Source of the DNA: Bacillota bacterium
GTDB lineage: Bacteria; Bacillota; Limnochordia; Limnochordales; ZCTH02-B6
Direction of reading: 5' to 3'
Length of the DNA stretch: 34,363 nt
NCBI GenBank assembly: GCA_017656145.1
Contig: JACDOI010000025.1
Span: 1 to 34,363, forward strand
Shown here: piece after piece, positions 1-9,363 of the stretch
Numbering within the stretch: the stretch's first letter is position 1
Layout: the number at the start of each line of letters is the position of its first letter
Notes under the pieces: model-generated
Database searches by the model: none
Told to the model about the DNA's origin: nothing
Seen by the model: only the letters and a program-made list of their open reading frames with translations
Made by a program: the position numbers and the translations under genes

Positions 1-1205
1 CAACGGTGAGGTCGGGAATCTATCCTCCTCCGTGCGACAGTGGCTTGACGCCATCAACAACCAGGAGCGCCTTGGAACCTTGGCCGTCTCGATGATACTG
101 TAGATCACGGCGCTGGAGAGAGCGCCTCGCGACGTGTTGGCAAAGAGCCAGTTCTTCCACCCGATAACAACCGGCTTGATGGAGCGCTCTGTCCGGTTGT
201 TGTGAATCTCACGTCGGCCGTCCTTCAGAAAGGCCGTCAGCCTCTCCCACTGGTTGAGGCAGTAACGCACCGCCTTGCCCAAGGCGCTCTTGGGAAGAGC
301 CGCTGCCTCCTGCTTCTTCAACCAGGCGTGAAACTCGTTCAAGGTCGGCACGCTTCGCACTTGGCGGGCCGCTTGGCGGTCCTGGGGTCGATTCCCTTGA
401 GAGAACGTTCAACGCGGAACAGACGATTGCAGTAGGCCAGGCCCTCCTCGGCGGTCACCGGCCTTTTCGAGCGCGCCGAGGGCGGCAACACCTTGATCGC
501 CTCGTCGAACTGCCGGCGGGCATGCGCCCAGCATCCCACGAAGGTAACGTCGGATAAGCTATCGTAGCCGCTGTAGCCGTCGACGTGAAGGTAGCCTTGG
601 AACCCGGACAAAATGGCTTTCGGATGGTCGCCGACCGCGTGAGCTGATAGTCAAGAAGCACGATCGGCAGTCCGTCGCGTTCGGTCTGGTACACCCAGTT
701 ATGCGACTGGATCTGCGCCGAACGATTCAGCTCGTGCAGCACCTGCACCGTCGTTTCATCGGCGTGCAGGATCTCTTCTTGTAGGAGCCTTCGACGCATC
801 GCCCGGTAGAGGGAAACCAGCCATCGTTTGGCACTCTCAATCATCCAGTTGGCCATAGTCTGTCGGGAGGGCGGGATCCCAAGGCGCTGAAAGTACTGCT
901 CTTGGCGGTAGAGGGGCAGCCTCCCACGAAGTTTTGCGTCATGACATGCGCCAATGCCAACGGAGAAGCAAGGCTTCCGGGGATCGGGGGAAGAGGCGCT
1001 TTCGCCGTCACGATCGGCGTCGCTTCGGCTTCCTGACCGCACCGGCAACAATCGTAGATCACCTGCACATGCTCCACTTTCTTCACGTGGTCCGGGACCA
1101 CTTTCAGCTCCCGGCGCACCTGCGTATTCATCCCGTGAAGCTCGCCGTGGTAGTGGGCACACGTTCGCTCCTCCTCGGGCAGGTCGATGGAGCGCCGCAG
1201 TCGCT
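1..1205 (-). pseudogene. IS66-family transposase, multiply frameshifted remnant
   Basis: Minus-strand reading frames that must be joined through at least three frameshifts (near 920, 630 and 350) give an IS66-type transposase. The N-terminal zinc-binding-like region reads IDLPEEERTCAHYHGELH, where the usual CPHC motif is damaged. Then come LPLYRQEQYFQRLGIP and ANWMIESAKRWL. The catalytic pattern survives as HADETT (first Asp), HVDGYSGYD (second Asp), and NNRTERSIKPVVIGWKNWLF with the following Glu-containing helix. The C-terminal end after IIETAK (about position 85) is degenerate or runs off the window. No terminal inverted repeats or accessory genes (tnpA/tnpB of IS66) were found. IS66 transposases are about 500 residues and cut and join DNA. 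This copy cannot make one intact protein. The family call is confident; the exact ends are not. Confidence 0.85.
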
Positions 1206-1289
1206 AACCCCTTCGCGACCGCTTGGGACGGGGTTTTCGCGATATGTGGGGGGTTTCTTCGACTCATCGGTCTGGCCATCCGGCAGCAG

Positions 1290-1740
1290 GAATTTTCCTT
1301 ATCATCACCACCCAGAGCGCCAGAACCGGTGCCCCGTGTCCCTCGTGGGGTCGTGTGTCCCGTCGCCGTCACAGCAGCTATACCCGGATGCTGATGGCTC
1401 TACCCGCTGACGTCCGGACGGTCAACATTCAGCTATCGGTGCCACGATTTCGTTGTGCCAATCCTGTCTGTCGCCGGCGCGTGTTTGCTGAACGCTTTCC
1501 CCAACTCGTCCGTCCCCATGCTCGTCACACGGAACGGCTAGAGAGCCTGCTCACCCGTATCGGTGTCCTCTTGGGTAGTGCGGCGCGGCCGGCGCCCGGC
1601 TTTCGCAGGACCAGTGTGCCCCCGTCACCCCGGACACGATTCTGCGCCTGCTTAACCGCATGGAACTCATGCCTGCAGCTAACCTCCGTGTGGTCGGCAT
1701 CGACGATTGGGCCTGGCGCAAGGGTGTGCGATGCGGAGCG
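1290..1740 (+). pseudogene. ISL3-family transposase, truncated and frameshifted
   Basis: The plus strand encodes an ISL3-like N-terminus. It has a zinc-finger-like start (CPSWGR, where the second Cys of the usual CPxC is Trp), SRRRHSSYTRML, a central RFRCANPVCRRRVFAERFPQLV segment, and an RHTERLESLLTRIGVLLG helix. Near 1580 the frame shifts to one reading GARLSQDQCAPVTPDTILRLLNR and NLRVVGIDDWAWRKG, the conserved start of the ISL3 catalytic domain with its first Asp. After about 1735 the similarity ends, so most of the catalytic domain is missing. It lies directly against the IS66 remnant on the opposite strand. The call rests on the order and spacing of recognisable ISL3 motifs. It is non-functional. 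Confidence 0.8.
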
Positions 1741-1882
1741 CGTGCTTGCTGGCCTCTTGGTCCCGGCGCTTCCCGTCCAGGACACGGCACCTGTCGAGGC
1801 GGTGCCCGATGCGCTACAACCCAAAGGCCGGAAAACCCGCAAGGACGCTGAGCAACGGCAACAGCAGCAGCGGCGGCAAGCC

Positions 1883-2176
1883 CTGTATATCTCAGAGATC
1901 ATCACCACTTCGATGCTTCCAGCCAGTAAGGGATTCACGCGTCTTGTGCCTTCGTTGGTCGTCGTAGCCGGATACGCCAGCGCGTTTTTTCTGTTGTCGC
2001 TCGCGCTCGGCACGGTTGCAGTGGATGTCGCTTATGCCATCTGGGCTGGCAGAGGCGTAGCCCCTGTAACTATCATTGCCTGGGTGGTGTACGGGAAAAA
2101 ACTGGACTTCGCCGCATTAGCGGGTATCGCGCTCATCGTGACAGGAGTGGTCGTGCTAAACCTATTTTCCAATTTC
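1883..2176 (+). pseudogene. small multidrug resistance (SMR/EmrE-like) transporter remnant
   Basis: About 97 residues match an SMR transporter from just after its N-terminus to the end. TM1 carries the conserved proton/drug-binding Glu (YISEIITTSML), followed by KGFTRLVPSLVVVAGYA. TM2 contains FFLLSLAL, TM3 reads VAYAIWAG, and a last helix follows GKKLDF and ends in VVVLNLFSN. SMR proteins are about 105-110 residues and export cationic drugs as dimers in the inner membrane. The normal first ~10 residues and start codon are absent. Instead the frame runs in continuously from upstream ISL3-derived and low-complexity Gln-rich sequence. It continues past the normal end into antisense of the neighbouring oxidoreductase remnant. 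Substitutions such as Arg and Pro inside the TM3 region (GRGVAP) suggest decay. I call it a pseudogene, although a chimeric product cannot be excluded. Confidence 0.75.
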
Positions 2177-2191
2177 CAGGACAGTGAGCCA

Positions 2192-2790
2192 TTAGACCAA
2201 CTGGTTATGGCGGGCGCTGCCCTCGGTAATGGCATCGGCTGCGAGAACCCCGGAAATCACCACGGCTTCGACTCCTGGACCCGGGAATGCCCCTGCACCA
2301 ACGAGGTATAGATGGCGAATCGGCGTCTGATGGTGAAGCCGTGTCATATGGTGTGCGGAGCCGTAAATCGCCCCATCGGGCGATCCGGTGGAGCGCGTCA
2401 CCGTAGCGGGCGTGGCCGCCACGTTGTTGCCTCGGGTTGGGGGTTCAGGGTCATAATCATCATCACGTGATGCCCAGGCGGGGTGAGGGAAGAGTCCACC
2501 TTCGATGGAACGACGACGCCAAGGCCCTTCCCGTCAGACGGAGCATACATGGTAATGGGCGCAACCGGCGGCTCGTAATCCAACGCAAGAAAAACAGCAA
2601 AGACTGAGTTGGTGGATTTTGGAGCGAAGAGTTTCTTTCTAAATTGCGCCGGTAGGTGTTGAACGACAACAAGGTCCAAAAAGTATTGTGCACGTCGGCA
2701 TTTGAAATCATCAGGTCTAAGAATTCGTACGCCCTCCGGTCCAGGTCCCCGGGCAGGAACCGCCTCCCTCTGGGGCAGGCAATATGTAGG
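2192..2790 (-). pseudogene. phytoene-desaturase-like FAD oxidoreductase, C-terminal fragments
   Basis: Three minus-strand frames together give the second half of a CrtI/phytoene desaturase-type FAD-dependent oxidoreductase. The first piece is LMISNADVHNTF (the VISNAD motif). After a shift near 2670 comes LPAQFRKKLFAPKS, ALDYEPPVAPIT and VVPSKVDSSLTPPGHHV. After a second shift near 2420 comes the C-terminal FAD motif, DGAIYGSAHHM, HLYLVGAGAFPGPGVEAVVISG and LAADAI. The N-terminal dinucleotide-binding half is missing. Upstream, the frame runs into an unrelated IS1182-type fragment. Intact relatives are about 490-530 residues and oxidise or saturate polyene substrates. The substrate of the ancestor cannot be inferred. 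It is non-functional. Confidence 0.75.
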
Positions 2791-2846
2791 ATGTAGACGC
2801 TACGCAACACGTCGAAGATCATGGTCATCGCCGGTTGCATCGTCAA

Positions 2847-2963
2847 AGGGAAGTTCTCCGCGGCAACGTATCGAAAGGCTACGTCTTCACGAATGCGTCG
2901 TTCGATCTTTCTGGAGGAGTAGACGACCACAGCGTAGGCATACATCGGCACATTGAGAATCAT
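2847..2963 (-). pseudogene. IS1182-type transposase N-terminal fragment
   Basis: About 39 minus-strand codons read MILNVPMYAYAVVVYSSRKIERR then IREDVAFRYVAAENFP. This matches the N-terminal (DUF772-like) region of IS1182/IS5-group transposases, which have the pattern Y-a-Y-a-x-G-v-y-S-S-R-k-I-e and then a D-v-a-F-r-y-L-a element. Similarity stops there and the same frame runs on into the oxidoreductase remnant, so the junction is probably a deletion or recombination scar. Short but distinctive. Confidence 0.65.
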
Positions 2964-3545: not shown

Positions 3546-3897
3546 CCCACGGATGGGTGCCGTTCGCATCCTCATCTGAGGTAGCCTGACCCTCGCTGCC
3601 GTCCTGGGGGCTATGGACCGGGCAGAAACAGTATCTATTCAACCTGGCTGCGGCGGGCATGCCGGGGTTCATCCTTGCATGGGGCAGGAACACTCATCTG
3701 GAATTCAAGAAGAAAATACTACTAAACCAATTCCGCGCCCAACAGGCAGGTAGCTCACACCTCCTCTCCAGTATGACGGAGGGTCTCACACAACACTGCT
3801 GCACCATGCAATTTTGGAGCAAAACTACCGGATCTGTACGCTGGGGCGAGCCCAAGCGGACTCCCCTACAAACAAGGTGGCATGAGGAGGCGAGGGT
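3546..3897 (+). other. unassigned spacer upstream of the McrB-like operon
   Basis: About 350 bases with no convincing gene. An 89-codon frame at 3659-3928 has no ribosome binding site, overlaps the start of the next gene, and shows no recognisable domain. The segment should contain the operon promoter, but I could not identify a good -35/-10 pair. A strong Shine-Dalgarno (GAGGAGG, 3884-3890) lies at its end. Confidence 0.4.
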
Positions 3898-5037
3898 GTG
3901 CGTGTTGTTGAGGACCAGCGCGCGATGAATGTGGTACCCCGATCTGGCTCTCACGAAGGGTGGATTGCCTATTGGAGGGACTTTATCGACTCGCTCAGCG
4001 AGGACGGGCGCAGGAAACTGCTAACTGATATGGGGCTCGCGGTGCCGGGCTTCCGCCGAGGTGCCAAGATACCTGACAAAAAAGTTCGTTCAACCCTAGA
4101 GGCCGAACCTGGCCAACACAACGGCAAGCGGTTCATGAAGTGGTTCCGTAAGCGCTTCAGCTCGTTGGTGCTGGTTCTGGAAAACGACTCTGGTGACGCT
4201 GTGGAAAAGAAGCTTCCATCGCTAGTGGAGGACACGCCCCCGGCCATTGTCCGCATGGCGTTAGCGATGTTCCGGCCTGAACTGTTTCCGTCGTTGGAAT
4301 CCACCCTGAATGAGCACGAAGAGAGGCTGAGGGCGAAAGCAACGGATACAGCATTACATGATCTTTCCCGTCAGGTCAGTGAATTAAAGGAAGAGCTCGA
4401 GGAGCTGAGGCGGCAACTGGACGCTGCGCGGCGCGAAAACGGGATCCTCACCGGTGAAAACCGGAAACTGCAACGACAAAACCACGAGTTGCAAAAACGA
4501 CTCGATAAGGTGCAAGTGGATGCCGAACAAAAGATTGGGCAGTGGAAGGAGAAGTTCGATAAGCTTCAACAACTGGTTTGGAATAAAGAGAAGGAAATTC
4601 ACTTATGCAAAACCAAGCTCGAACAGGTTCTTTTAGATATCAACAATCGAGACAAGGCCATCAACGAGTTGCAGCGGCGCATCAACGGTTACAAACGAGC
4701 GCTGGCTGAACGGCAGCATTTGACTCGCCTATATGGGTCAATGGCGAAGCGGCGGGATCCCGGTGACGCCCCGCCTGATATGCAGGTATTAGTGCTGGGA
4801 GCTGGATTCCCAACGGAGGCGTTCGAGGTAAACGGCAAGTTGGTCCATATAGAAGGGATTGAAGTTCCTGGAGAAGTTGATCGCGAGCTGATCCAAAGGT
4901 GTGCTGCTTATAACAGGGTTTTCTTGCTCTCCTCGTGCCCGTATGCCTTTCGTTTGAGTGTGTACGGGCAACTTGGCGGCGTGACGGAAATTCCAAGTCT
5001 TGCCCAGGTGCGTAATGAGTTGGGATTGGAGGAATGA
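3898..5037 (+). CDS. coiled-coil protein, first gene of McrB-like defence operon
   Basis: This 379-residue protein has three visible parts. Residues ~18-135 are a basic, partly helical N-terminal region (WIAYWRDFIDSL ... RFMKWFRKRF). Residues ~136-272 are a long heptad-rich coiled coil with many Glu/Lys/Arg/Gln. Residues ~294-372 are a small alternating alpha/beta domain that starts MQVLVLGAGFP and includes VFLLSSCPYAF. The last part weakly recalls DUF2325-type Rossmann-like domains, but this is only an impression. GTG 3898 is chosen because GAGGAGG sits 7 bases upstream; ATG 3925 is an alternative. The stop overlaps the start of the McrB-like gene, so the two are co-translated. Coiled-coil partners of McrB/McrC-type proteins are known in defence systems, so a scaffold or sensor role is inferred. 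No catalytic residues are evident. Confidence 0.8.
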   Translation: MRVVEDQRAMNVVPRSGSHEGWIAYWRDFIDSLSEDGRRKLLTDMGLAVPGFRRGAKIPDKKVRSTLEAEPGQHNGKRFMKWFRKRFSSLVLVLENDSGDAVEKKLPSLVEDTPPAIVRMALAMFRPELFPSLESTLNEHEERLRAKATDTALHDLSRQVSELKEELEELRRQLDAARRENGILTGENRKLQRQNHELQKRLDKVQVDAEQKIGQWKEKFDKLQQLVWNKEKEIHLCKTKLEQVLLDINNRDKAINELQRRINGYKRALAERQHLTRLYGSMAKRRDPGDAPPDMQVLVLGAGFPTEAFEVNGKLVHIEGIEVPGEVDRELIQRCAAYNRVFLLSSCPYAFRLSVYGQLGGVTEIPSLAQVRNELGLEE

Positions 5038-6983
5038 TGAGCGTGCCTCAACGAGAATGGGAGTGCGTCTTGGCGGGGCGATTGGCCTCGGACGATGAAA
5101 TGCCCGATGTACGGCATTCCTCGGTCTTTATTAATCGGGAGCGAAGCATCCAATTTTCGATCAAGGTGATGTCCGATGCACCCGATGTGATAAGCGGAGT
5201 GCAAAATTTTACCTGTTGGGCAAATCATCTGCCTGACTTTCAGGACGATATATTTGCCGATAACGATGAGCGCATTAGGAATCTGCGCAGATATTTAGAT
5301 GGAAAGATTATCTTATTTAAGCCGGTGCAGCGAACGACCCCGGACACGAAATGGAACCTTGCCCAACCCATCACAGTGTTGGACGCGCCTGAGGCGTTGG
5401 GCGAACACTCACACCTTGTGCCTATTCTCTATCTGCCCGACTTTATGCCCGAGGAGTTTGAACAGAGGTTCTTTGGGCGGCATCCGGTGGGAGGGCCGTA
5501 CAATCGCACATTCCCCAAGGAAATGCCTATCCCCAATCCCATTACGGTGTGGGTCGGGAGTTGGTTGTACGGTCCGTTTGATGTCATGCGGGCCGTGTAT
5601 GGTGGCTGGATGTTTCGGGGTGAATCAGTGCGGAAAATCGAGGTAAATATCACGGAGTTCGGAACATTAATCTTGCCATACCGGAACATTGTCTTTATCG
5701 AGACCAATACCTACGAACAAGTGTTGGTGAACCGTCTTGAATCCGAGGGAATGCGGTTGCAAAAGCCGGATATGGAGGTTCAATCTCGCACCGCTACTTC
5801 AGGAGGCCCTACGCTCGATGCCGCGACAGGCAAGAAAAAAATGGTTGATGGCCGGACCGCGGTTGATGTCGTGACGCCGATGTACGTCAGGTTTCGTCAG
5901 GAGGATTCTGAACTCGAACACGAGCTGTCGCCGGAGAAAAGCTTGTCGGAGGCGGCCTTCCTAAGGCGGTTACAGCGCCTAGCGCATGCAAAACGCCTTT
6001 TTTACGACGAAGAGGACCTAGTCAACTTCCATACCGCGCTCAAGACGGGCAACTTGGTGCTCCTGGCAGGTATGTCAGGCACCGGAAAGTCGCGCTTGGT
6101 GCAATTGTACGCAGACGCTTTGGGTATGGATGACGAACAGTTTGCTATGATTTCCGTTTGTCCGACCTGGACCGACGACAGCGACGTGTTGGGTTTCTTG
6201 GACCTCACCAACGGCATCTATCGACCGAGCGACAGTGGATTGGTTGATCTGCTTATCCGCGCTTACCGGAATCCGGACAAGCTGTATATGGTGTGTTTTG
6301 ACGAAATGAACCTGGCTCGGGTCGAGCACTATTTTTCGCAGTTCATTTCGGCTTTGGAGCTTGAGCCGGATCATCGCTTCATCAGCCTGTACACCGCGGC
6401 GATGGAGGGCCGGGTTTACAACTCGTCGCATTACCCATCCAAAGTGCCGGTGGGGAGGAACGTGATGTTCGTGGGGACGGTGAACGTCGACGAATCCACC
6501 TACGCTTTCAGTGATAGGGTGCTGGACCGGGCGCAGGTAATTCGTCTGCGAGTACTGCCGTTTTCCGACGGCTTGACCCATGCTGCAACGATATCCGAAC
6601 CAGTGAAAACTCCGCCTGTGTCCTTTGCAACCTACGACGCCTGGCGCACCTTGCCTGCCGATATCAAGCTGTCCCAGGGTGAGCTGGAGTTCTTGGAACG
6701 ACTGCACAACGAACTGCAAAGCGTTGATCTACAAAGAGGTGTAGGCCACCGTACCGTGCGGCAGATCGACACCTACCTGCAAAACATCCCTCTCGATGAT
6801 GACGACAGTCCAAGCATTGAACGCTCGCTTGCGTTTGATCTGCAAGTCGTACAGAAGGTGGTGCAAGGGAGCTCCTTGATCGCTCTGATGGACGAATTCC
6901 AGGACCTGAGCAGCTTTACGCTGAGCAGGCAGGAGATCAAACAGAAGGCTAGGGAATTGAAGGCTTATGGTTACGCCTCGTAA
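5034..6983 (+). CDS. McrB-like AAA+ ATPase/GTPase
   Basis: This is a 649-residue protein. Residues ~330-560 form an AAA+ module of the McrB/MoxR branch. Walker A is GMSGTGKS (346-353), Walker B is CFDEMN (421-426) followed by LARVEHYF, the sensor-1 region is GTVNVDES (481-488), and SDRVLDRA (493-500) is the likely arginine-finger segment. Classical McrB has MNTADRS at the sensor, so nucleotide preference is uncertain. Residues 1-~325 are an uncharacterised N-terminal region, where McrB proteins usually carry a target-recognition domain. The start may be ATG 5034, ATG 5037 (4 bases after GGAGG) or GTG 5043 (10 bases after). It overlaps the coiled-coil gene at its 5' end and the nuclease gene by 17 bases at its 3' end. 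It presumably forms a ring that drives the McrC-like nuclease on foreign DNA. Confidence 0.88.
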   Translation: MMSVPQREWECVLAGRLASDDEMPDVRHSSVFINRERSIQFSIKVMSDAPDVISGVQNFTCWANHLPDFQDDIFADNDERIRNLRRYLDGKIILFKPVQRTTPDTKWNLAQPITVLDAPEALGEHSHLVPILYLPDFMPEEFEQRFFGRHPVGGPYNRTFPKEMPIPNPITVWVGSWLYGPFDVMRAVYGGWMFRGESVRKIEVNITEFGTLILPYRNIVFIETNTYEQVLVNRLESEGMRLQKPDMEVQSRTATSGGPTLDAATGKKKMVDGRTAVDVVTPMYVRFRQEDSELEHELSPEKSLSEAAFLRRLQRLAHAKRLFYDEEDLVNFHTALKTGNLVLLAGMSGTGKSRLVQLYADALGMDDEQFAMISVCPTWTDDSDVLGFLDLTNGIYRPSDSGLVDLLIRAYRNPDKLYMVCFDEMNLARVEHYFSQFISALELEPDHRFISLYTAAMEGRVYNSSHYPSKVPVGRNVMFVGTVNVDESTYAFSDRVLDRAQVIRLRVLPFSDGLTHAATISEPVKTPPVSFATYDAWRTLPADIKLSQGELEFLERLHNELQSVDLQRGVGHRTVRQIDTYLQNIPLDDDDSPSIERSLAFDLQVVQKVVQGSSLIALMDEFQDLSSFTLSRQEIKQKARELKAYGYAS

Positions 6984-8703
6984 GCTGCCGTTTGAAGTGC
7001 GATTGCACTTTGCGTCGCTCGACGGATCGAAAGTGCGTGCGTTGCGCAATTTCACAGATAAGATTGAGGAAGCGGATATAGACGACACTTATCTCATTGA
7101 GTACCATCCCTGTTCGCTGGAATTCGCCGCACTGGAACCTGATGTGCCGGCGGACGCGCGCTTATATGTTGACCGCTTAGATGCGCTGGCCGATCCGGGG
7201 CTTGCCATGGATGACGAACGAATCTACATCAGATGTGGCACTACCGTCGAAATCCAGCGGCCCGACGATGCCCGCTTTCCTTGGATTCCCGGCAACTACC
7301 GGGTGGAGGTGCGCTGGGGCGGACGTTCGTATTACACCGTCTTGCAGGTGCGCCCCAAGGACATGACGATGGATCAATTGCGCATGATGCGAGAGGAGCT
7401 GGAGCGATATGTGGTCGGTCTGACACTGGACCTGATACGACGCGCCCAGGGATTTGGGGACTCGGAACTGGCTCACCATCTTCCACTCCGATTTTACCAG
7501 TACCAACTGTTGGAGGATAAATTCCCAGTCTTGTACGCTGTATTACAGGATATCGTTAGGCGGCCAAAACACGAAGTGTGGCGTACCCATACCATCCGCC
7601 CGACTCATCGGATCACGCGCCAAGACCAAAAATCGTATCAGTGGATGCATTCGGCTGCTGGTTACGCGCGCAACCGATTTTCTGACGTTCGATCGAAGCC
7701 TCTTTATGCTTTGGCGCCACTAAGCACCGTTCGATATGACCTGCCGGAGAACCGGTGGGTGAAACGCATCTTGAAGCAACTCATAGCCATTATGGATGAC
7801 ATCGCCGACTCCATTGAACGGTTGAGTCACTCTGATTGGTCCATGGCATCTCGCTTGAATTACGAAAAATCTCGGTATCTTGGGCAGGTGCGGCGACTAC
7901 AGGCCAGATTGCGTTCTATACTGGCTCATCCGCTGTTTGAGGAGGTCCAGGATGTCTACGGGCCTTTGCCGTATACCCCAGCCATGCAACGGGATGGGCG
8001 GTACAGGACACTCTATCGTTTTTGGTGGGATCTCATTATACATAGCGAAGTAAAAGTTAACGCGTCCTTTGAGTACCAGTGGAAGAAAACAGATCTGCTA
8101 TGGGAGTATTGGGCGTTTGTTCGGACAATTCGGGCGCTCCGTGTGATTGGCTTCGAACCCGTCAGTGGGTGGATTTTCGATGAGACGTGGAGTTTTCCGG
8201 ACCGGGTTTTCATCCCAACGATTCCGGAAGGGACGAAGGTAGTGATGCGTCGTGACGATGAGCGTGTGGAAATTCACTACTTGGTCAGGTTGCCCAAGGA
8301 TAAAGAGAGTGCAAGATTGCGTGGTTCGCTGCTTTACGTACTTGGAAACAATAACTGGCCAGACATTAGACTGGACTACTATAAAGCGGATGCGTACGAG
8401 TACTCCGTGGTGGTTGAGGCCAAGTACAGGAAGTCGCGGAATATTTGGCCTAAGGATAAATCAGTGGATTTTTCCAAGTGGACCCCGGTTATGCGGCAAA
8501 TTCAAGACTATCGAGACAAGATTAAGCGACTAGATGACGTTCTCAAGTACGCTGTGCGTGAGGTGATTGTTCTGTACCCAAAAGACGCGGAAAGGGCGAC
8601 AGTGAGTGATGAAGGAGATCAAGTTGTCTTGATTCAGTTGATGCCCGATGAGTCAGATGAGCACTATATCGAGCATTTAAGGGAGTTACTACGGTGTCCC
8701 TGA
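6967..8703 (+). CDS. DUF2357 / PD-(D/E)XK nuclease, McrC-like
   Basis: A 578-residue protein. Residues ~85-340 resemble DUF2357, a McrC-like activator region. Residues ~350-575 resemble the PDDEXK_7 (former DUF524) nuclease fold. The catalytic signature is visible as WPDIRLD (Pro465-Asp466) followed by VVVEAKYR (Glu484, Lys486), the PD...ExK arrangement of restriction-type nucleases. Aromatic and basic residues (FWWDLI, LLWEYWAF) precede it, as in that family. ATG 6967 lies inside the end of the McrB-like gene (17-base overlap) after a GAAGG. In McrBC systems McrC stimulates the McrB motor and cuts DNA, and the same division of labour is inferred here. Base composition is less GC-rich than in the flagellar genes downstream, consistent with transfer. 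Confidence 0.85.
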   Translation: MVTPRKLPFEVRLHFASLDGSKVRALRNFTDKIEEADIDDTYLIEYHPCSLEFAALEPDVPADARLYVDRLDALADPGLAMDDERIYIRCGTTVEIQRPDDARFPWIPGNYRVEVRWGGRSYYTVLQVRPKDMTMDQLRMMREELERYVVGLTLDLIRRAQGFGDSELAHHLPLRFYQYQLLEDKFPVLYAVLQDIVRRPKHEVWRTHTIRPTHRITRQDQKSYQWMHSAAGYARNRFSDVRSKPLYALAPLSTVRYDLPENRWVKRILKQLIAIMDDIADSIERLSHSDWSMASRLNYEKSRYLGQVRRLQARLRSILAHPLFEEVQDVYGPLPYTPAMQRDGRYRTLYRFWWDLIIHSEVKVNASFEYQWKKTDLLWEYWAFVRTIRALRVIGFEPVSGWIFDETWSFPDRVFIPTIPEGTKVVMRRDDERVEIHYLVRLPKDKESARLRGSLLYVLGNNNWPDIRLDYYKADAYEYSVVVEAKYRKSRNIWPKDKSVDFSKWTPVMRQIQDYRDKIKRLDDVLKYAVREVIVLYPKDAERATVSDEGDQVVLIQLMPDESDEHYIEHLRELLRCP

Positions 8704-8820: not shown

Positions 8821-9363
8821 TCAACCAAAGTATGCAGACGCGCCTTTGCCCCGATTGCAATCCGAGCATGAGGTGACAAGGTTCTCCAGTGCGTTCGTCC
8901 CGCCCTTCGATACCGGTATCTTGTGGTCGATCTCCAGGGTGATGCCGTGTTTCTTTGGAGTTCGGCCGCAGTATTGACAGGTGAAGTTATCCCGGGCGAA
9001 CACTTTCCAACGAACTCCTTTGGGAATCGGCGTTCGTTTATATGTGTGGGGTGATTGAGCGTCTGAACGCGTGAAGCGCCGATTGGTGCCGGCAGAGCGG
9101 CCCCGCAAGCTCCACGCAAAGAAGAGAAAGGCCAGAATGGTCATGGCCAAAGCGGATTCATCCTGCTTGAGCCATAGATCGAGTGCTGCCACGCCAATGA
9201 GAGCAGCGAAGAAAGACGCAAGACTGATCGATTTTCGGCGGGGCCAGACAAGAAACGAAATCAGCAACGCCATCGCTGCCGACGAAATCTCCCCGTCTGC
9301 AACAAGGCTAATGGCCCCGATCCCGAAGATAAGCGCAAGGATGGCCCGAAGCAGCTGTATCAT
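8821..9363 (-). CDS. membrane-anchored HNH endonuclease
   Basis: A 180-residue protein on the minus strand. Its first ~88 residues are hydrophobic, with about three or four predicted membrane segments (roughly 4-20, 28-40, 49-64 and 70-86) separated by short basic turns. After a basic linker comes an HNH domain (~115-176). It has CQYC (Cys129, Cys132), LEIDHKIPVSKGG (Asp146, His147), ENLVTSC with Asn161, and CSDCN (Cys166, Cys169), giving the ββα-metal centre and a structural zinc site. HNH nucleases nick or cut DNA. Attachment to multiple membrane helices is unusual and would place cutting at the cell membrane, for example on incoming DNA. A G-rich ribosome site precedes ATG 9363. It converges on the McrB-like operon with about 117 bases between stops. 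A shared defence role is inferred from position only. Confidence 0.85.
   Translation of the reverse strand: MIQLLRAILALIFGIGAISLVADGEISSAAMALLISFLVWPRRKSISLASFFAALIGVAALDLWLKQDESALAMTILAFLFFAWSLRGRSAGTNRRFTRSDAQSPHTYKRTPIPKGVRWKVFARDNFTCQYCGRTPKKHGITLEIDHKIPVSKGGTNALENLVTSCSDCNRGKGASAYFG

What the first reader, a model, noticed from the sequence alone, without database searches (positions are those of the whole stretch)
3898..8703. Candidate new three-gene McrBC-like defence system with a coiled-coil partner
Three tightly overlapping genes encode a coiled-coil protein with a small C-terminal alpha/beta domain, an AAA+ protein with McrB-like motifs (GMSGTGKS, FDEMN, GTVNVDES) but not McrB's MNTADRS, and a DUF2357/PD-(D/E)XK nuclease with PD...EAK residues. 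The AAA+ protein carries ~325 uncharacterised N-terminal residues where McrB proteins place target recognition. The operon sits beside recombinase and IS debris and looks less GC-rich than its surroundings. Motor plus nuclease pairs of this type are known. The coiled-coil protein as first gene, and the unknown recogniser, are what may be new.
Basis: partly seen in the sequence, partly recalled or inferred. Interest (0 to 1): 0.78.

Follow-up and report, generated by a model that had tools for sequence, protein, structure and literature searches.

The report
Known-type McrBC defence trio (CoCoNuT I-B)
Three overlapping genes encode a coiled-coil protein, a McrB-like motor and a McrC-like nuclease; they match a published but experimentally untested bacterial anti-virus system type (Type I-B CoCoNuT), and this particular copy has lost a small conserved piece of its motor.

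Summary
In detail: 3898-5037, 5034-6983 and 6967-8703 are one tightly coupled operon for a coiled-coil protein, an AAA+ McrB-like motor and a DUF2357/PD-(D/E)XK protein. Its novelty is not upheld. The trio matches Type I-B CoCoNuT (Bell et al. 2024, PMC11090510): separate coiled-coil CnuA, CnuB with the NxD motif (here GTVNVDES) and CnuC. In 80 named loci plus 12 regions of sampled genomes, the three-gene order is present in 68 of 81 assessable loci, nearly all Bacillota. NxD is in 88/88 CnuBs. A GTPase tree puts the window inside an 84-row clade (99/99) apart from proteobacterial CoCoNuT-like systems. Two loci fuse a CnuA-like part to CnuB, so the coiled-coil gene is probably a working part. 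Three details not seen in the paper: the window's CnuB alone lacks ~25 conserved C-terminal residues, so this copy may be impaired; the CnuA C-terminal domain, published as a phospho-receiver, has no conserved phosphoacceptor Asp; and cnuC starts inside cnuB with the same 17-nt overlap in 80 of 86 loci. The recognition domains were not identified. New member of a known kind; modest interest.

The parts
3885..3890 (+). Shine-Dalgarno-like AGGAGG, 7 nt before GTG 3898
   Evidence: sequence
3898..5037 (+). cnuA-like gene, 379 aa coiled-coil protein
   Evidence: ORF; orthologues L035/L036 8e-28 and 7e-24; AF2 mean pLDDT 87.2
3952..4272 (+). CnuA N-terminal helical bundle (aa 19-125), at the place of the published PYD/CARD-like domain
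   Evidence: AF2 secondary structure; fold identity not confirmed
4285..4746 (+). CnuA long coiled-coil helix (aa 130-283)
   Evidence: AF2
4780..5019 (+). CnuA C-terminal alpha/beta domain (aa 295-374), at the place of the published receiver-like domain; no conserved phosphoacceptor Asp
   Evidence: AF2, column counts over 30 homologues
5034..6983 (+). cnuB-like gene, 649 aa McrB-like AAA+ NTPase
   Evidence: AAA_5; PADLOC PDC-M26A 4.7e-42; PDB profile hit McrB
5049..5747 (+). CnuB beta-rich N-terminal region (aa 6-238), presumed recognition part, unidentified
   Evidence: AF2; no Pfam or PDB profile match
6069..6092 (+). Walker A GMSGTGKS (aa 346-353)
   Evidence: invariant G346, G349, G351, K352
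6297..6311 (+). Walker B FDEMN (aa 422-426)
   Evidence: E424, M425, N426 invariant
6483..6491 (+). NxD signature (N484-V-D486)
   Evidence: NxD in 88 of 88 aligned CnuBs
6861..6866 (+). junction of a window-specific in-frame loss of about 25 residues after aa 610
6967..6983 (+). 17-nt cnuB/cnuC overlap
   Evidence: same offset in 80 of 86 loci
6967..8703 (+). cnuC-like gene, 578 aa McrC-like protein
7291..8025 (+). DUF2357 domain (aa 109-353)
   Evidence: PF09823 1.2e-18
8098..8586 (+). PD-(D/E)XK nuclease domain (aa 378-540), D466 and E484-A-K486 present
   Evidence: PF04411 2.2e-5; P465, D466, K486 invariant

Best explanation
A horizontally acquired Type I-B CoCoNuT operon (cnuA-cnuB-cnuC), a branch of the McrBC Type IV restriction systems, in a Bacillota genome. 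Likely working: CnuB forms a hexameric NTPase ring whose beta-rich N-terminal region recognises foreign or modified nucleic acid; CnuC inserts its DUF2357 stalk into the ring, stimulates hydrolysis through the NxD motif and cuts with its intact PD-(D/E)XK site; CnuA is a long coiled-coil scaffold with a helical-bundle end and a small alpha/beta end that assembles with or gates CnuB. Shown here: gene order, domains, catalytic residues, conservation, and fusion of a CnuA-like part to CnuB in two relatives. Inferred: ring assembly, substrate, defence role, task of CnuA. This copy lacks about 25 conserved residues near the CnuB C-terminus, so it may be weak or inactive.
For: NxD motif in window and all 88 CnuBs, the published mark of the branch. 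Separate coiled-coil gene, CnuB, CnuC in the published order, in 68 of 81 assessable loci (architecture). Window nested in an 84-row Bacillota clade (99/99), apart from CnuH-type proteobacterial systems. Helical bundle, long helix and alpha/beta end in CnuA; no coiled coil in CnuB. DUF2357 and PD-(D/E)XK in CnuC. McrB is the best profile hit among solved structures and a fold match. All 48 CnuBs hit the PADLOC candidate PDC-M26A. CnuA-like/CnuB fusions L065 and L119. Trios on plasmids, one flanked by ISS1 copies.
Against: The published I-B reference proteins were not held, so the clade itself was not tested. CSD, YTH-like and PYD/CARD-like domains were not identified, the CnuC Ig-like domain was not tested, and the CnuA C-domain lacks the receiver Asp. 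No experiment on any Type I-B system was found in the held library.
Confidence: 0.8

Rival explanations
1. A new, unnamed three-gene McrBC-derived system with a novel coiled-coil partner, or a separate subtype next to Type I-B.
For: CSD, YTH-like and PYD/CARD-like folds were not confirmed, and the CnuA C-domain departs from a receiver. The window and its nearest rows form an early branch within one of the two main groups.
Against: Gene order, separate coiled-coil gene, NxD motif, McrC architecture and Bacillota host all match the published type.
Confidence: 0.12
2. A canonical two-gene McrBC system of the E. coli type with an unrelated coiled-coil gene in front.
For: Intact PD-(D/E)XK in CnuC; McrB is the nearest solved relative of CnuB.
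Against: NxD instead of NxxD in all relatives; the coiled-coil gene is conserved and sometimes fused to CnuB; no canonical recognition domain found by Pfam.
Confidence: 0.03
3. A decayed remnant: once a working Type I-B system, now inactive because of the CnuB deletion.
For: The window alone lacks a stretch with one Gly in 47/47 and a Lys in 46/47 of the other CnuBs; neighbouring DNA is IS debris.
Against: All three frames are open, overlaps and catalytic motifs are intact, and conserved columns elsewhere are mostly kept. The loss could be an assembly error in a 116-contig genome.
Confidence: 0.3

Closest known systems
Type I-B CoCoNuT (CnuA-CnuB-CnuC), Bell et al. 2024, eLife, PMC11090510
   Same: Separate coiled-coil CnuA with helical N-end and alpha/beta C-end; CnuB with NxD motif and no coiled coil; CnuC with DUF2357 and PD-(D/E)XK; gene order; Bacillota
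   Different: CSD, YTH-like, PYD/CARD-like and Ig-like identities not confirmed here; the CnuA C-domain lacks a conserved phosphoacceptor Asp; the window's CnuB lacks about 25 conserved residues
E. coli McrBC (EcoKMcrBC)
   Same: McrB-like AAA+ motor and McrC-like DUF2357/PD-(D/E)XK partner
   Different: NxxD motif there, NxD here; no coiled-coil gene there; very distant in the GTPase tree
CoCoNuT-like systems of Rhizobium, Klebsiella and Photobacterium plasmids (gene content resembling Types II/III)
   Same: NxD motif and DUF2357 partner
   Different: Extra large genes upstream, including a helicase-like AAA protein, and a separate clade (100/99)
PADLOC candidate PDC-M26A
   Same: Model hits the window CnuB at 4.7e-42 and all 48 aligned homologues
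   Different: Only a candidate protein model; no companion hit for CnuC and no paper found for it

Membership tests
Type I-B CoCoNuT | McrB-like GTPase with NxD (not NxxD) motif | tested here: met
   GTVNVDES in the window, NxD in 88/88
Type I-B CoCoNuT | Separate coiled-coil gene CnuA beside CnuB and CnuC | tested here: met
   68 of 81 assessable loci
Type I-B CoCoNuT | No coiled coil fused to CnuB | tested here: met
   AF2 secondary structure shows none in 649 aa
Type I-B CoCoNuT | CnuA N-terminal PYD/CARD-like helical domain | tested here: inconclusive
   Seven-helix N-domain predicted, but no significant fold or sequence match
Type I-B CoCoNuT | CnuA C-terminal receiver-like domain | tested here: inconclusive
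   Alpha/beta domain present, but strand order is unusual and no Asp is conserved at the phosphoacceptor place
Type I-B CoCoNuT | CnuB N-terminal CSD (usual) and YTH-like (often) domains | tested here: inconclusive
   Beta-rich region well predicted but unidentified
Type I-B CoCoNuT | CnuC with DUF2357 and PD-(D/E)XK | tested here: met
   PF09823 and PF04411 over cut-off, catalytic residues invariant
Type I-B CoCoNuT | CnuC N-terminal Ig-like domain | not tested
Type I-B CoCoNuT | Placement in the published I-B clade of the GTPase tree | not testable with these tools
   Published reference proteins not held; own tree separates the window's clade from proteobacterial systems
Type I-B CoCoNuT | Mainly Bacillota | tested here: met
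   Same-phylum genomes correspond to Bacillota records; named homologues nearly all Bacillota
Canonical McrBC (E. coli type) | NxxD signature motif | tested here: not met
   NxD
Type I-A CoCoNuT | Helical insert between Walker B and NxD; no CnuA | tested here: not met
   FDEMN at 422 to N484 with no long helix predicted between helix 427-441 and the motif; a separate cnuA is present

The most novel reading that the evidence does not exclude
The CnuA C-terminal domain is not a phospho-receiver but a degenerate Rossmann-like protein- or ligand-binding module, so Type I-B CoCoNuTs are not controlled by histidine kinases as proposed, and CnuA senses or scaffolds in another way.
Probability: 0.5. 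Interest if true: 0.4.

Novelty: new member of a known kind. Interest (0 to 1): 0.3.

Why it matters
It places another locus in a computationally named defence class for which no experiment was found in the held library, and gives testable details: a coiled-coil partner that is conserved and sometimes fused to the motor, a receiver-like domain without its phosphorylation site, and a fixed cnuB/cnuC overlap. It also warns that this copy is a poor bench choice because its motor lacks conserved residues.

Tried and rejected
Viral-contig scan with CnuA found no relative. The phage collection has three partial AAA matches only, so a phage origin is not supported. Foldseek on the CnuB model was dominated by the AAA+ domain. 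Foldseek on CnuA gave only weak hits (best E 0.012), to G-protein alpha subunits, not used as evidence. PDB profile searches with the separate end domains gave nothing usable. No paper found for PDC-M26.

Full report
WHAT IS THERE. The first begins at a GTG 7 nt behind AGGAGG. GC is mostly 50-56% in the operon and 60-71% on the chemotaxis/flagellar side of the window; GC3 is 0.58-0.64 against about 0.7-0.8 in most larger ORFs to the right. To the left lie broken IS66, ISL3-type and DUF772 transposase pieces and an SMR-type transporter fragment. An acquired island is a fair reading; IS debris is there, but no recombinase turned up among the scanned proteins.

PROTEINS. Gene 3 is a McrC homologue: DUF2357 1.2e-18 and PDDEXK_7 2.2e-5; P465, D466 and K486 are invariant across 48 homologues. 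Gene 2 is a McrB-like AAA+ protein: AAA_5, best PDB profile hit E. coli McrB, Foldseek match to McrB 6hz4 among MoxR- and dynein-like AAA+ proteins. Gene 1 is predicted as a helical bundle (aa 19-125), one long helix (130-283) and a small alpha/beta domain (295-374), mean pLDDT 87.

THE KNOWN SYSTEM. Bell et al. 2024 (PMC11090510) describe a branch of McrBC systems marked by NxD in place of NxxD, which includes the CoCoNuTs. Their Type I-B encodes a separate coiled-coil protein CnuA (PYD/CARD-like helical N-end, receiver-like C-end), CnuB without coiled coil but with CSD and often YTH-like domains, and CnuC with Ig-like, DUF2357 and nuclease parts, mainly in Bacillota. The window's GTVNVDES is the NxD motif.

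CONSERVATION. CnuC searches of sampled relatives and of the phylum found orthologues; 12 regions were fetched. A CnuB profile scan of genome contigs gave 80 named loci. With duplicate records and contig-edge cases removed, a coiled-coil ORF directly upstream and CnuC downstream are both present in 68 of 81 loci. The coiled-coil call rests on a crude composition score of mine plus length and position. Exceptions include a Veillonellales clade without CnuA, split or truncated genes, contig ends, and two loci (L065, L119) where a helical plus coiled-coil part is fused to the front of CnuB; in L065 it precedes the usual CnuB N-terminal region. Such fusions argue that CnuA acts with CnuB. NxD is present in all 88 aligned CnuBs.

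TREE. A GTPase-domain tree of 92 rows puts the window with L035 and L036 (100/94), then L047 (96/80), inside a clade of 84 rows (99/99) that holds all 67 trio systems of the tree; Rhizobium, Klebsiella and Photobacterium plasmid systems form a separate group (100/99). E. coli McrB is on a very long branch, so the root is unsure. The published I-B references were not held, so membership in the published clade itself was not tested.

THREE DETAILS NOT SEEN IN THE PAPER SECTIONS READ. (a) After CnuB residue 610 the window lacks a 25-column stretch that relatives keep (around K-[LIV]-[RK]-G ... L-[IL]-G); one Gly is in 47/47 and a Lys in 46/47 of the others (sequences). The DNA reads straight through in frame. 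The stretch lies in the C-terminal helical region where AAA+ lids lie (inference), so the motor may be impaired, or the assembly may be wrong. (b) At the end of the strand where a receiver carries its phosphoacceptor Asp, CnuA has mostly Ser, Thr or Tyr, with Asp in 1-2 of 30 homologues, and strand 1 does not end in a conserved acidic pair. The predicted order b-b-b-a-b-a-b-a also departs from a classical receiver. This weakens, without disproving, the published idea of control by histidine kinases. (c) cnuC starts 17 nt before the end of cnuB in 80 of 86 loci (78 counted directly, plus L041 and L105, whose cnuC is cut by the contig end and whose offset and ATG are the same). Translational coupling is the simple reading; conservation of the CnuB C-terminal GY motif could also fix it.

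MECHANISM. By McrBC precedent (Niu et al. 2020 and Nirwan et al. 2019, as cited in PMC11090510), CnuB should form a hexamer activated by the DUF2357 stalk of CnuC, whose nuclease has intact catalytic residues. What is recognised is unknown. The CnuB N-terminal 240 residues are beta-rich and well predicted, but neither Pfam nor PDB profile searches identify them. The paper predicts RNA recognition; an intact PD-(D/E)XK also allows DNA cleavage. No experimental test of any Type I-B system was found in the held library. Trios on Companilactobacillus and Lactococcus plasmids, the latter between ISS1 copies, fit a mobile defence gene set.

VERDICT. Real, conserved and probably a defence system, but of a published type. 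New member of a known kind; modest interest, mostly for the CnuA C-domain and the damaged motor.

Noticed in passing
window 6861-6866 (CnuB after aa 610): In-frame absence of about 25 residues that every other full-length CnuB keeps; deletion or assembly error.
   Followed up: partly
window 6967-6983 and homologous loci: cnuC begins inside the last codons of cnuB with the same 17-nt overlap in 80 of 86 loci, across much protein divergence.
   Followed up: partly
L065 5245-7857 and L119 5158-7092: Single proteins that join a CnuA-like helical and coiled-coil part to CnuB; the L119 protein appears to lack the CnuB beta-rich N-terminal region.
   Followed up: partly
L063, L066, L089, L090, L098: Veillonellales CnuB clade (100/100) with long CnuBs and no coiled-coil gene directly upstream.
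   Followed up: no
L087 (JAFQXD010000015.1): A contig binned as Methanobrevibacter carries a CnuB nearly identical to that of a Lactococcus lactis plasmid (L136); probably contamination of the MAG.
   Followed up: no
window 8821-9363 (-): Convergent gene for a predicted membrane-linked HNH endonuclease (PF01844 4.3e-15) just after the operon.
   Followed up: no
window 339-2963: Nested remnants of IS66, an ISL3-type zinc ribbon joined to an SMR transporter fragment, and a DUF772 transposase piece.
   Followed up: partly
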